From the IMG/VR virus record IMGVR_UViG_3300028840_004217, positions 1 through 64,000 of that record: a DNA stretch of 64,000 nucleotides; one strand, 5' to 3'. Each line of letters starts with the position of its first letter. Position 1 is the first letter of the stretch. Of this stretch, positions 6,832-57,223 are shown piece by piece. A program made the position numbers and the translations under genes. This DNA is from a virus. Under the pieces are notes generated by a model. It ran no database searches. It saw only the letters and a list, made by a program, of their open reading frames with translations, and was not told where the DNA came from.

Positions 6832-8220
6832 ATGCGCATCGCCTTGCTCAATCCCCCCTGGTATGTGTACGACGATTCACGCGGTCATCTCCACGGTGTC
6901 CGCGCCGGTTGCCGGTGGCCGTCGCTCGGTCCCGGTGGCGGCCCCCACCTGAACATGATGCGGAACAACATATACATGCCCTACCCGTTCGTGATGGGCT
7001 ACACCGCGTCCCTCCTGGAGCAGTACGGCCACGACGTGATGTTCTACGACGCGATCTGCGAGTGCGACGACATGCAGACGTTCTATCTGAAGGTGATGAA
7101 CTTCAAGCCCGACGTCGCCATCGTGGAGACCAGCTCCGCGTCGATCACGCACGACCTGGGGATATGTGACATGCTCGCCGAGTACGGCATACGGGTCGCC
7201 CTGGTGGGACCCCACGCCACCGCATACGCGGCGGACATGATCAAGCACCCGTCCGTCACCTGGGTGCTGACGCAGGAGTATGACGATCAGGCTGTAGAAC
7301 TCGCGAACGGCCTCCTGGCGGAACAGACGGTCTGTTCGGGCCCTTTGCCCGATGATCTCGATGCCCGCCCGTTCCCGGTGCTGGAGCTGCCGCAGGCGCA
7401 TTTCTATCAGGACCACTACGGGTTCGACTGGTTTGAGCGTCCGCAGGTGCAAATCTGGACGACGCGGGGCTGTCCCTATTCATGTTCGTTCTGCCTGTGG
7501 CGGCACACGATGTACGACGACGACGGCAAAGGCTCCTACCGCCAGCGTTCTGCGGGCAACGTGCTGTCCGAAGTGGACCACCGCTATGAGGTGTTGAATT
7601 TTCGACACTTCCTATTCGACGACGACACGTTCAGCGTCGTGGGCCGTGAAGGAACCGGCAGCAGAGGTTACGACAGGGTGGTGGGTATAGCCGAGGGCAT
7701 GAAGGAACGTGGCTACGAGTGGTCCTACATGACCCGGCTCGACTGTCATTCACTCAACCTGTTCGAGTATATGCGGGACTGCGGGGCCGTGGCGTTGAAG
7801 GTGGGCGCGGAGACGTTCAGCGACAAGACGCTCCACGGCATCGAGAAGCGGATGACGGGTGAAGCACAGCTCGACCGCATCAAGGCCCTGGTCGAACTCG
7901 GCTACGGCGTGTACCTGGCGACCACCTCTTATATACCCGGCGAGACAGAGGACGACCGGAAGCGGAACACGGACATCCTCGAGGAGCTGGCACAGATCGG
8001 GGTGAAGTGGCAGCGGCCCCACATGACGCCGTTGCCGGGCACGCCCCTGTTCCGGCAGTTTCAGGCGGCGGGGTACTTCGCTGATCCGGACTGGTCGCTG
8101 TTCGACGGCGGAGCCGGGTTGCTGCACGACGTGATCGAGGACTACAACCGCAATGCGGGCGCCGGCGACTTCGACGCGGACAGCGCGGAGGCGGCGCATT
8201 GGGAAGGAGCGAATCGATGA
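6832..8220 (+). CDS. B12-binding radical SAM protein
   Basis: 462 residues, start preceded by AGGAGGAC. An N-terminal cobalamin-binding-like Rossmann domain (MRIALLNPPWYVYDD, then VALVGPHATAY) is followed by a radical SAM core whose cluster motif is CPYSCSFC at about residues 218-225. FLFDDDTFSV, ALKVGAETFSDKTL and SYIPGETEDD match the SPASM-less Elp3/MiaB-like core order. Such enzymes methylate or rearrange unreactive carbons; the substrate is unknown. Neighbours include glycosyltransferase and sulfotransferase-like genes, which suggests a shared modification pathway. Confidence 0.9.
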   Translation: MRIALLNPPWYVYDDSRGHLHGVRAGCRWPSLGPGGGPHLNMMRNNIYMPYPFVMGYTASLLEQYGHDVMFYDAICECDDMQTFYLKVMNFKPDVAIVETSSASITHDLGICDMLAEYGIRVALVGPHATAYAADMIKHPSVTWVLTQEYDDQAVELANGLLAEQTVCSGPLPDDLDARPFPVLELPQAHFYQDHYGFDWFERPQVQIWTTRGCPYSCSFCLWRHTMYDDDGKGSYRQRSAGNVLSEVDHRYEVLNFRHFLFDDDTFSVVGREGTGSRGYDRVVGIAEGMKERGYEWSYMTRLDCHSLNLFEYMRDCGAVALKVGAETFSDKTLHGIEKRMTGEAQLDRIKALVELGYGVYLATTSYIPGETEDDRKRNTDILEELAQIGVKWQRPHMTPLPGTPLFRQFQAAGYFADPDWSLFDGGAGLLHDVIEDYNRNAGAGDFDADSAEAAHWEGANR

Positions 8221-19064: not shown

Positions 19065-20906
19065 ATGAAGGCCGTCCTTGTCGTTCCGATCTCCACCGCC
19101 CTGCACGACCCGTTCGCCTATCCACCGATGGGCCCTATGATGATCGCGGCTGTACTGCGCGAGGACGGGCACGACCCCCACATACTTTTCGCTCACCACG
19201 TTCCGGATGAAGGCGTGACCTACGGCACCTCTCGGAACGTGTCGGCCTACACATCGGCTCCTTCCCTGTTCAACAGCGCCGACATCATCGGCGTGAATAT
19301 CTTTTCCGAAGCCACCTTCGACGCGGCCCGCGCCGTTCTGGAGGACGCCCTCTACACCGATGCCTGGCTCATAGCGGGCGGCGCGTTCGCGACGAGTGCA
19401 CCCGAGGAAACCCTGGACGCCGGGTTCGACATCGCCGTTCGGGATGAAGGAGAGGAGACCATCATGCAAGTGATCGACGTGCTCAAACAGGAGCCGTCCT
19501 ATTTGGGTATGACCAGTGAAGTGGCCGACAGGCTGAAGGTGGTGCAGGGCATCTCCTTTCAGGACGAGAACGGGCGGCGCACGATCACGCATCCGCGCAG
19601 CAACCCGCGCGACCTGGACCTGCTGCCCCGGCCCGCCTGGGACCTGATCGACCCGAGCATCGCGGCCCAAGAAACGCACACCCACCTGGCCCCCGGCAGG
19701 ATCAGCACCACCGTGTTCGCCACGCGGGGCTGTCCCTTCGACTGCACCTTCTGCCTGACGCCCGACGCCCGCGTGTACACCACGCACCACGGGTATCGGG
19801 GCATCACCGCCCTGCGGCGGCTCACGGGCGTGATGACGCACAAGGGCGACAGCGGACGCTACGACCAGCGTTTCGAGCGTCAGTATGAAGGGACCGTATA
19901 CGAACTGCAATACCCGACGGGCAAGGTGACGGCCACACCCGAACATCCGGTGGCCGTGGTCGACATGCAGTGGCACGCCCTGAAGGGCAAACAGGCGTTG
20001 CCCGTAAAGTGGACCCGCGCCGATCAGCTCACGGAAGGGCAGTACGTCTGGTGCTTCGATGACGAGCAGAAGATGTTCATACCCTACCCTATCCGTTCTA
20101 TCAGCCAGAAGCAGTATGCCGGGCCGGTGTACAACATAGAGGTGTTGGGCGACAACAGCTTCATAGCCAACGGCCTGGTCGTCCACAACTGCAACAGGGA
20201 GATCGGCGGCCGTTTTTTTAGATCACACTCGGTTGATTATATCCTCGACCACCTGCGTCACCTGCGTGATCGCTACGGCGTGACGCACGTCCGCTTTCCC
20301 GACGACCTGTTCACCACCAACCACAGGTGGGTGCGTGAGATCAGCGCGGCCCTCGGCGACGACAACTTCACCTGGGTCGCCCTGTCCCGCACCGACACGC
20401 TCAGCGACGACCTGGCGGCAGACATGCACGCCGGGGGATGCCGCGGCCTGTTCTTCGGCATCGAGTCCGGCTCGCAGCGCATCCTCGACCTGATGCGCAA
20501 GGGCACCACGCCCGCAGACAACGGGCGGGCCATCGAGATATGCCGCGAGGCCGGCATCACGTCGTCCGCCTATTTCATCTTCGGATTCCCCGGCGAGAAC
20601 CGCGAGTCCGTGGAGGACACGGTGTCGTGGCTCGACACGTACCGGCCCGACCGGGCGCATTACTCGACGTTCCTTCCCATACACGGCACGGACCCGCACC
20701 GTCATCCCGACCAGTTCGGCATACGCATCAAGCCGGGGTACAGGAACTGGTATTACTACGACGATCCTGAATTCCCGGTGGAGTACCTACCCCCCAACCC
20801 GTCGAACGCAGAGCTGGCCGTTCTGCGCGACTACCTGCACCGGGCGTTCGACGAGTGGGGGTATCTGTCGTTTGCCGAGCGTGCCAGCGTGAAAGAGGCC
20901 GGATGA
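19065..20906 (+). CDS. B12-binding radical SAM protein interrupted by a mini-intein
   Basis: 613 codons; start preceded by CTGGAGGTACC. N-terminal B12-binding-like domain (YPPMGPMMIAAVLREDGHDP, IAGGAFATSAPEE) leads to a radical SAM core. The cluster motif reads CPFDCTFC at residues 223-230, but the third Cys is residue 1 of an intein (230-375). Removing it restores CPFDCTF plus CNREIGGRFF and a normal 467-residue enzyme with FPDDLFTTN, FFGIESGSQRILDLM and FGFPGENRESVEDT. The active enzyme therefore depends on protein splicing. Substrate unknown. Confidence 0.92.
   Translation: MKAVLVVPISTALHDPFAYPPMGPMMIAAVLREDGHDPHILFAHHVPDEGVTYGTSRNVSAYTSAPSLFNSADIIGVNIFSEATFDAARAVLEDALYTDAWLIAGGAFATSAPEETLDAGFDIAVRDEGEETIMQVIDVLKQEPSYLGMTSEVADRLKVVQGISFQDENGRRTITHPRSNPRDLDLLPRPAWDLIDPSIAAQETHTHLAPGRISTTVFATRGCPFDCTFCLTPDARVYTTHHGYRGITALRRLTGVMTHKGDSGRYDQRFERQYEGTVYELQYPTGKVTATPEHPVAVVDMQWHALKGKQALPVKWTRADQLTEGQYVWCFDDEQKMFIPYPIRSISQKQYAGPVYNIEVLGDNSFIANGLVVHNCNREIGGRFFRSHSVDYILDHLRHLRDRYGVTHVRFPDDLFTTNHRWVREISAALGDDNFTWVALSRTDTLSDDLAADMHAGGCRGLFFGIESGSQRILDLMRKGTTPADNGRAIEICREAGITSSAYFIFGFPGENRESVEDTVSWLDTYRPDRAHYSTFLPIHGTDPHRHPDQFGIRIKPGYRNWYYYDDPEFPVEYLPPNPSNAELAVLRDYLHRAFDEWGYLSFAERASVKEAG
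19752..20189 (+). mobile_element. 146-residue mini-intein at a radical SAM cluster cysteine
   Basis: Starts with Cys in CLTPDARVYTTHHGYRGITA (block A), has block B TGKVTATPEHPVAV with the TxxH, and ends with block F YAGPVYNIEVLGDNSFIANG and block G LVVHN before the +1 Cys of CNREIGG. No LAGLIDADG or HNH motif lies between, so it has no homing nuclease. The terminal His-Asn and +1 Cys are those required for splicing. Confidence 0.93.
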
Positions 20907-21334: not shown

Positions 21335-22381
21335 TTGCCCCTGACCCCCTACGATCCCCTGCGCATCCTGCGGTACGTCGATGAGGTCCCCGCGATGCGC
21401 GATGCACGCATAGATTTGGTACGCCCCAGGATGCTCCTGCTCTACCCCTCTATGACCTGCAACCAGAACTGCGGATATTGCTACTACACCGAGATGCACC
21501 GGCCCAAGGAGTTCATGCCCTCCGAGAAGATCGCGGACATATTCGATGATGTGATTCAGATGGGCGTGGAGGGTGTGGAGCTGTGCGGCGGCGGCGAACC
21601 TATGCTGCATCCGGAGATGCACATCTGGCTGGAGTACGGCCTGAAGTTGGGGCTGAAGTTCGGCATCCTGACGCACGGGGCCGTGACCAGGAATGACGTG
21701 TTCGACATGATGGGCCGCGAATTCTCATACGTCCGGTTCTCGCTCGACTATGCCAACCCGCACCGGTATGCTGAAACGCGGGGCGTCGATTTCCGCGACT
21801 ATGAACGGGTGCTCCAGAACGTGCAGCGCACCATCAAGGCGCGGGACAAGGCGAACAGCAACTGCCGCGTGTCGATCAAGGCGACCATTCACGAACAGAC
21901 GGCGGCCGATTGCATCGCCCTCTATGAAACGGGCAAGGGGTTGGGCGTGGACAGCGTTCAGTTCAAGCGGGCCGACGAAGTGGGCGGCGGCCTCGACGAC
22001 GACCCCGACCGGCGCGGCGAGATAGAGAACATCCTGATGATGATGCGCCAGGGCATCCAGGATGACCAACCCGACGTGGTATTCAACTTCGGACGCATGA
22101 AGTTGCAGCACCGTTGCTGGCTGCATCCGGTCCACGCCTTCATAGAAACGGACGGTGACGTGCACCTCTGTTGCTACTACACGGGCAGACAGGACACCCA
22201 CAAGATCGGCAACGTGCATGAGAAACCCCTGTCCGAGATATGGGGGTCGCCCGAACACGTGGAGGCGATGAAGGCGACGGACATAGGCGAGTGCAACAAA
22301 TACGCCTGCCGGTTCATAGGGTACATGGACACCCTGACCCGCGCCGTCGACAACGACGAGGCCCAGCTACAGTTCATGTAA
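21335..22381 (+). CDS. Radical SAM protein with SPASM-like C-terminus
   Basis: 348 residues from TTG at 21335, preceded by AAAGGAGGG. The cluster motif is CNQNCGYC (about residues 43-50), followed by GVELCGGGEPMLHPE, the GGGEP motif II, and VRFSLDYANPHRYAE. The C-terminus has HRCWLHPVHAFIETDGDVHL, CCYY, KIGNVHEKPLSEIW and CNKYACRF, a SPASM/Twitch-like auxiliary-cluster layout. Such enzymes modify peptides, sugars or tRNA; substrate unknown. Confidence 0.9.
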   Translation: MPLTPYDPLRILRYVDEVPAMRDARIDLVRPRMLLLYPSMTCNQNCGYCYYTEMHRPKEFMPSEKIADIFDDVIQMGVEGVELCGGGEPMLHPEMHIWLEYGLKLGLKFGILTHGAVTRNDVFDMMGREFSYVRFSLDYANPHRYAETRGVDFRDYERVLQNVQRTIKARDKANSNCRVSIKATIHEQTAADCIALYETGKGLGVDSVQFKRADEVGGGLDDDPDRRGEIENILMMMRQGIQDDQPDVVFNFGRMKLQHRCWLHPVHAFIETDGDVHLCCYYTGRQDTHKIGNVHEKPLSEIWGSPEHVEAMKATDIGECNKYACRFIGYMDTLTRAVDNDEAQLQFM

Positions 22382-56109: not shown

Positions 56110-56270
56110 CAGCCAGCTCCTTTCGTGGTGTCTGCCGGTGCGCTGGTCGTGTCGGGCGGCGCAGGTGCGGGTTTCGGCTTTTCAGCCCAAAACATGCCCT
56201 CGATCGTCTTGCAGCACCCCGGCTCGTTCTGCTTGTTGTAGCTGCCCCGCTTTATGATGATGAATTTCAT
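56109..56270 (-). CDS. 53-residue Pro-rich protein
   Basis: MKFIIIKRGSYNKQNEPGCC then KPKPAPAPPDTTSAPADTTK. AAAGGAA upstream. A Cys pair and a flexible Pro/Ala/Thr tail. Unknown. Confidence 0.55.
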   Translation of the reverse strand: MKFIIIKRGSYNKQNEPGCCKTIEGMFWAEKPKPAPAPPDTTSAPADTTKGAG

Positions 56271-57223
56271 AGGACGTTCCTTTCCACTCTGTCGGCCCGC
56301 GCCTCGTCGTCGGGATCGGGTTTCAGGCCGAGTTCTATGAACCAGTCGCAGGTGGACCCGCTGTGCTCCGTCAGGAACCGGGCCACCGCCTCCAGCTTGC
56401 GGGCCTCATGCTCGAACGTCACGCGTGCCCGTTCCAGGTGCTCCTCGTTGTGCTTGACGTCGGACGCGCAACCGGCCACCTTGTCCTTCTGCTGGTAGGC
56501 CGCCTCCTGCATGACCAGGATGACGTTCTCCTCCACCAGAGCCAGCCCCGTGATCTCGTCCTTCGGATCCTCCGCCTGTTGAGACACGACGGCCACCTCA
56601 CCCGTACCCGAACACACTGAGCAGTGTACGTCACCGCCGCCGATGATACCCGTCCCCCCGCACTCCGGACACTCCGTTGTTTTCATGATGGGCACTTCTC
56701 CTTTCCCTTGACATTGACAACACTCGTCGGCGCCCGTACCGTCACAGGCCGGGCATTTGATGAACTCCAGGATGCTGGCCACGCCCTTCGAGCTGGCCCA
56801 CGGTATCACGCCGCGCCCGCCGCACCAGGTACAGGCCGTCTGCCCGACCTTCCCGCCTTCATGCCCGCAGGCGGGACACGGGATGGTCTGTCCGCAGCCG
56901 TTGCAGACGTAACACCTTTCGTCCGGCTCCTCCTCATCGGTACTCCCCTTCAGTATGCCCTCACCCCGGCATTTGTAGCACGCCGTCGTCTTGCCGGGAT
57001 CGAGGACGACGGGTACGCACCCCAGGCCGCGACAGAACGGACACAGGGTATCCAGGGGCGTGGCTTTCGTCGTGCGGCCCATGCCCTCACACGGCGTACA
57101 GAAAACCAGCCCGCCCTTGCCCCCGCATTTGTAGCAGACCTGCGGCGCGCCGTCGTCATCGACCTGGCCCGTACCGTCACAGTTATTGCAGACCTCGGGT
57201 ATAGGCAACGTACTGCTGCACAT
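56267..57223 (-). CDS. DnaJ-type zinc-repeat protein with twelve CxxCxGxG-like motifs
   Basis: 318 residues, AAAGGAGGT upstream. Motifs in order: CNNCDGTG, CYKCGGKG, CTPCEGMG, CPFCRGLG, CYKCRGEG, CYVCNGCG, CPACGHEG, CTWCGGRG, CPACDGTG, CCQCQGKG, CPECGGTG, CSVCSGTG, all within residues 12-210. DnaJ has four. There is no J domain. A helical C-terminus follows. Possible chaperone-like or metal-storage role. Confidence 0.85.
   Translation of the reverse strand: MCSSTLPIPEVCNNCDGTGQVDDDGAPQVCYKCGGKGGLVFCTPCEGMGRTTKATPLDTLCPFCRGLGCVPVVLDPGKTTACYKCRGEGILKGSTDEEEPDERCYVCNGCGQTIPCPACGHEGGKVGQTACTWCGGRGVIPWASSKGVASILEFIKCPACDGTGADECCQCQGKGEVPIMKTTECPECGGTGIIGGGDVHCSVCSGTGEVAVVSQQAEDPKDEITGLALVEENVILVMQEAAYQQKDKVAGCASDVKHNEEHLERARVTFEHEARKLEAVARFLTEHSGSTCDWFIELGLKPDPDDEARADRVERNVL

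What the first reader, a model, noticed from the sequence alone, without database searches (positions are those of the whole stretch)
19752..20189. Mini-intein splitting the [4Fe-4S] CxxxCxxC motif of a B12 radical SAM enzyme
The 146-residue intein starts exactly at the third cluster cysteine, and the +1 residue after it is Cys, so splicing rebuilds CPFDCTFC. Cluster assembly is impossible before splicing. That makes splicing an on-switch which could respond to redox state or metals. There is no homing nuclease.
Basis: partly seen in the sequence, partly recalled or inferred. Interest (0 to 1): 0.85.

Follow-up and report, generated by a model that had tools for sequence, protein, structure and literature searches.

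The report
Phage mini-intein inside radical-SAM cluster motif
A phage enzyme that needs an iron-sulfur cluster carries a small self-removing protein insert exactly at one of its three cluster-binding cysteines; the insert is real, but many other enzymes of the same superfamily carry inserts at the same spot, so it is an ordinary member of a recurrent kind whose proposed redox switch remains untested.

Summary
Confirmed: window 19752-20189 (+) encodes a 146-aa mini-intein inside a 613-aa B12-binding radical SAM protein (19065-20906) of a 92-kb IMG/VR phage. It has Cys1, TPEH, terminal HN, Cys+1 and a confidently modelled HINT fold (pLDDT 93; best PDB match Mtu RecA intein). Predicted splicing gives 467 aa and restores CPFDCTFC, which aligns without a gap to intein-free homologues. 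It has no endonuclease domain. 'Cluster assembly is impossible before splicing' is not supported: Cys1 sits at the third cluster position, so the precursor already reads CPFDCTFC. The site is not unique: I found 35 further loci with inteins starting at the third cluster cysteine and ending N|Cys, across several radical SAM subfamilies in phages, archaea and bacteria; ten of the 36 are 146-173 aa, too short for an endonuclease. NCBIfam already names two intein-containing radical SAM families. The redox-switch idea has a published precedent, the Pyrococcus abyssi MoaA intein, trapped by a Cys-3/Cys1 disulfide, the geometry seen here. Best reading: a splicing-competent class 1 mini-intein, probably a relic that lost its endonuclease, at a recurrent landing site. 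Regulation is possible but unshown.

The parts
19065..20906 (+). Intein-containing B12-binding radical SAM precursor gene, 613 aa
   Evidence: ORF and translation; PF04055 79 bits, PF02310 42 bits, both above cut-off
19752..20189 (+). Mini-intein, 146 aa, class 1, no endonuclease domain
   Evidence: TIGR01443/TIGR01445/PF14890; AF2 pLDDT 93.4; Foldseek to solved inteins
19065..19751 (+). N-extein, 229 aa: B12-binding domain and first two cluster cysteines
   Evidence: PF02310 residues 18-136; alignment with intein-free homologues
20190..20903 (+). C-extein, 238 aa: starts with Cys+1 (third cluster ligand after splicing) and the rest of the radical SAM core
   Evidence: PF04055 residues 378-523; alignment
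19731..19733 (+). Cluster Cys (C223), position -7 relative to the intein
   Evidence: sequence; invariant in homologues
19743..19745 (+). Cluster Cys (C227), position -3: the partner cysteine of a MoaA-type redox trap
   Evidence: sequence; MoaA precedent
19752..19754 (+). Intein Cys1, nucleophile; occupies the third cluster position in the precursor
   Evidence: invariant in the same-site inteins
19935..19946 (+). Block B TPEH (TxxH) motif
   Evidence: T62 and H65 invariant in A1
20052..20054 (+). Only other intein cysteine (intein residue 101)
20124..20189 (+). Blocks F and G, ending VYNIEVLGDNSFIANGLVVHN
   Evidence: TIGR01443
20190..20192 (+). Cys+1: splicing acceptor and third cluster ligand of the product
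   Evidence: sequence; alignment

Best explanation
A class 1 mini-intein sits in the cluster-binding loop of a phage-encoded B12-binding radical SAM enzyme. Cys1 attacks the F229-Cys1 bond (aided by TPEH), the N-extein moves to Cys+1, Asn146 cyclises, and the 467-aa enzyme with CPFDCTFC results. The intein most likely descends from an endonuclease-bearing element that lands repeatedly at this conserved active-site codon in radical SAM genes, and it has lost its endonuclease. Because the motif always supplies a cysteine at -3, every intein at this site can in principle form the Cys-3/Cys1 disulfide known from P. abyssi MoaA and stall under oxidation; whether this phage uses that is unknown. Shown: anatomy, fold prediction, recurrence of the site. 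Inferred: splicing, endonuclease loss, any regulation.
For: Complete splicing residues and a HINT fold; clean restoration of an invariant three-cysteine motif; intact extein domains. Same-site inteins with LAGLIDADG-type cores in phages L003, L005, L020-L023, L026 and archaeon L014, and 29 further distinct cellular loci beyond L014 with both junctions read; ten of the 36, the window included, are 146-173 aa without room for an endonuclease. Published MoaA precedent. Codon usage fully adapted to the phage.
Against: No splicing experiment exists. PF14890 and TIGR01445 fall under their curated cut-offs. The block F Asp is Asn here (also in most same-site relatives). The intein's own ancestry is unresolved (long branch, no starred clade). 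No close phage relative with an empty site was found.
Confidence: 0.88

Rival explanations
1. Redox-conditional intein: in oxidising cytoplasm Cys-3 (a cluster ligand) and Cys1 form a disulfide, which blocks splicing until conditions are reducing, so that the oxygen-labile enzyme is made only when it can work.
For: Exact Cys-3/Cys1 geometry of the P. abyssi MoaA intein, also a radical SAM enzyme. All same-site inteins found share it.
Against: The -3 cysteine is fixed by the cluster motif, so its presence is not evidence of selection for regulation. Host and its redox state are unknown. No data on this protein.
Confidence: 0.25
2. Cluster or metal checkpoint: Cys-7, Cys-3 and Cys1 bind Fe-S or Zn in the precursor and thereby hold back splicing until the metal leaves, the reverse of the first reader's order of events.
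For: All three thiols are contiguous in the precursor. Zn and Cu inhibit inteins by coordinating active-site residues including Cys1 (review PMC7765530).
Against: No metal-binding evidence; an intein in the cluster loop may prevent the geometry; the precursor model is too poor to judge (pLDDT 57).
Confidence: 0.1
3. Inactive remnant: the intein no longer splices and the enzyme is dead.
For: Block F Asp replaced by Asn; endonuclease gone; subthreshold Pfam score.
Against: All core residues kept, open frame, intact exteins with conserved motifs; Asn at the same place in most same-site relatives.
Confidence: 0.05
4. A bacterial intein-like (BIL/Hint) domain of a secreted or toxin-type protein rather than a true intein.
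For: Same fold superfamily; BIL and hedgehog domains appear among Foldseek hits.
Against: Both flanks are halves of one enzyme, Cys+1 is present and the join restores an invariant motif.
Confidence: 0.02

Closest known systems
Pyrococcus abyssi MoaA intein (Callahan et al. 2011, as described in PMC10663303 and PMC3922620)
   Same: Intein in a radical SAM enzyme with Cys-3 and Cys1; disulfide between them controls splicing there
   Different: Host is MoaA (not B12-binding), from an archaeon; the original paper was not held, so its exact insertion codon was not read here
NF038136 intein-containing Rv2578c family radical SAM protein
   Same: Relatives of this family found here have the intein at the third cluster cysteine, ending N|Cys (L140, L145 and others); they include 150-154 aa mini-inteins
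   Different: Different radical SAM subfamily, in Actinomycetota genomes; intein not closely similar
Intein-bearing B12-type radical SAM proteins in phages L003, L005, L020-L023
   Same: Same domain layout and same site
   Different: Inteins of 339-372 aa with endonuclease core; precursors only 23-27% identical to the window protein
NF045703 tetraether lipid synthase Tes, intein-containing
   Same: Curated example of an intein in a radical SAM enzyme
   Different: Insertion codon not checked here
Mtu RecA intein splicing domain (2in0)
   Same: HINT fold, TM 0.79
   Different: 22% identity, different host and site

Membership tests
Intein (class 1) | Cys/Ser at position 1 | tested here: met
   Cys1 at 19752-19754
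Intein (class 1) | Block B TxxH | tested here: met
   TPEH, T62/H65
Intein (class 1) | C-terminal Asn, usually after His, followed by Cys/Ser/Thr | tested here: met
   VVHN|C; TIGR01443 27.7 bits over 15.6
Intein (class 1) | HINT fold | tested here: met
   AF2 plus Foldseek
Intein (class 1) | Block F Asp (common, not universal) | tested here: inconclusive
   Asn in VYNIEV; also Asn in L003, L005, L014, L026, L032; conserved in many inteins but not treated here as an absolute requirement (own knowledge)
Intein (class 1) | Self-splicing activity | not testable with these tools
   needs expression
Mini-intein | No homing endonuclease domain between blocks B and F | tested here: met
   146 aa in all; model shows splicing domain only
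B12-binding radical SAM enzyme | CxxxCxxC cluster motif | tested here: met
   restored by joining exteins; invariant in alignment
B12-binding radical SAM enzyme | N-terminal B12-binding domain plus radical SAM core | tested here: met
   PF02310 and PF04055 above cut-off
A named functional subfamily of B12 radical SAM enzymes | Curated NCBIfam cut-off reached | tested here: not met
   best is ApyD, 129 bits against cut-off 750; no equivalog reached
MoaA-type redox-switch intein | Cysteine at -3 plus Cys1 | tested here: met
   C227 and C230
MoaA-type redox-switch intein | Disulfide that reversibly blocks splicing | not testable with these tools
   biochemistry needed

The most novel reading that the evidence does not exclude
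The third cluster cysteine is a superfamily-wide intein site at which cluster ligands and splicing nucleophile are the same thiols, so that inteins there act as built-in redox or metal checkpoints of radical SAM enzymes, in phages as well as cells.
Probability: 0.12. Interest if true: 0.75.

Novelty: new member of a known kind. Interest (0 to 1): 0.38.

Why it matters
The single case is ordinary, but the survey shows that inteins occupy the same cluster-cysteine codon in several radical SAM subfamilies and in phages. Each automatically has the Cys-3/Cys1 pair reported to make a redox trap in MoaA. That turns one published curiosity into a testable general question: are these inteins regulators of oxygen-sensitive enzymes, or parasites that settled on an unalterable codon? 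The 146-aa phage intein is also a small new splicing domain.

Tried and rejected
P0001 and P0002 as single queries in viral contigs gave no radical SAM relative. The extein alignment A2 was too diverse for a pattern scan. No portal match in the phage collection, and the one capsid relative (L041, a 12.4 kb fragment) held no radical SAM gene, so no empty-site sister was obtained. The precursor fold was poor (pLDDT 57) and was not used. The intein tree leaves the window intein unplaced; an AU test does not reject a single origin of all same-site inteins (p 0.187), so neither single nor multiple origin is claimed. The Callahan 2011 paper itself is not held. Pattern hits L004, L006-L013 and L015-L019 are intein-free radical SAM proteins or chance matches (but the genome of L006 has a same-site intein elsewhere, L051); L024, L025, L027-L031 and L033 likewise hold no intein. 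'Not a real intein' and 'BIL domain' were considered and rejected.

Full report
Observation. The window lies in a 92,049-bp virus record. ORF 19065-20906 encodes 613 aa. Residues 230-375 (19752-20189) form a 146-aa intein: Cys1, TPEH, VYNIEV...FIANGLVVHN and Cys+1. TIGR01443 passes its cut-off; TIGR01445 and PF14890 are significant by E-value but below curated cut-offs. AlphaFold2, with seven same-site inteins as alignment, gives pLDDT 93.4 and an all-beta model whose best PDB matches are inteins, first the Mtu RecA splicing domain.

Host protein. The exteins carry a B12-binding domain and a radical SAM core. No named NCBIfam subfamily is reached, so the substrate is unknown. Joined exteins align with Azospirillum, Rhizobium, Solidesulfovibrio, Eleftheria and Streptomyces phage SF3 proteins at 27-29% identity, with all three cluster cysteines invariant and no insert at the join. 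The enzyme has no other CxxxCxxC.

The intein begins with the third-position cysteine itself. The precursor therefore already contains CPFDCTFC; what differs is that its third cysteine is the intein nucleophile. Before splicing the radical SAM core is interrupted and presumably inactive (inference), but that a cluster cannot form is not established, and a bound metal could equally well inhibit splicing.

Recurrence. Degenerate DNA patterns for a radical SAM motif running into an intein start found same-site inteins in viral contigs L003, L005, L020-L023 (one lineage), L026, L032 and in a Pacearchaeota genome, L014. A profile of that junction (A3) separated a true case (118 bits in L014, itself a member of the profile) from plain radical SAM motifs (about 28 bits). 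In samples of five phyla (371, 400, 380, 396 and 395 genomes) it found inteins starting at the third cysteine in CxxxxCxxC B12-type enzymes (L060-L064, L119, L123), a MoaA-like protein (L065), AmmeMemoRadiSam-type enzymes (L104, L107, L113, L160), L100, and about two dozen Rv2578c/PA0069-type proteins in the phylum of Micromonospora (L051). In all 36 distinct loci, the window included, where both ends were read, the +1 residue is Cys. Ten are 146-173 aa long, too short for an endonuclease; the rest are 295-472 aa, and most show endonuclease-like motifs. Subfamily names rest on NCBIfam for ten proteins and on motif likeness for the others. Counts are lower bounds and the search was built on this site, so they say nothing about inteins elsewhere in radical SAM proteins.

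Origin. A tree of 75 splicing domains clusters the radical-SAM-site inteins much more than shuffled labels (6 changes against 17.8) but cannot place the window intein; one origin is not rejected. Its best full-length BLAST match among the session's sequences is a mini-intein in a Chloroflexota genome, in what looks like SufB by its flank (30% over 163 columns; SufB by eye). Codon usage equals that of the phage, so it is not a recent arrival from a genome of different make-up. Loss of the endonuclease is inferred from same-site relatives that have one.

Known work. Reviews and papers state that inteins favour active sites (PMC5790916, PMC7765530) and that the P. abyssi MoaA intein is controlled by a Cys-3/Cys1 disulfide, proposed to protect an oxygen-sensitive enzyme (PMC10663303, PMC3922620). 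NCBIfam curates intein-containing Rv2578c and Tes families. I found no paper in the held library that describes the third cluster cysteine as a recurrent site; the library is incomplete.

Verdict. Real, correctly described, and a new member of a known kind. The mechanism of excision is standard. The regulatory claim is a fair hypothesis with a precedent, but the feature it rests on comes with the site and is not specific to this phage.

Noticed in passing
L035:11344-11904 (G000:91344-91904): Free-standing NUMOD3 homing endonuclease (PF07460; PHROG HNH/homing endonuclease) in the same phage. It could in principle mobilise elements in trans; no link to the intein was shown.
   Followed up: partly
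6832-8220 and 21335-22381: Two more radical SAM genes in the same phage (one B12-binding-like, one SPASM), both with uninterrupted cluster motifs.
   Followed up: partly
window 9373-30059 and L034:10981-13420: The phage carries glycosyltransferases, a methyltransferase, a DegT-type aminotransferase and a myo-inositol-1-phosphate synthase-like gene: an unusual metabolic cargo.
   Followed up: no
L046 and L002 (contig IMGVR_UViG_3300045243_000021): Another phage with two inteins, one in a methyltransferase-like protein and one at SSC| in a cysteine-protease-like protein (host names by eye).
   Followed up: no
L032:466-2559: Same-site intein of 295 aa whose middle is a hydrophilic stretch without obvious endonuclease motifs, possibly a decayed endonuclease.
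   Followed up: no
56267-57223 (-): Protein with repeated DnaJ-type CxxCxGxG zinc motifs and no other strong Pfam domain.
   Followed up: no
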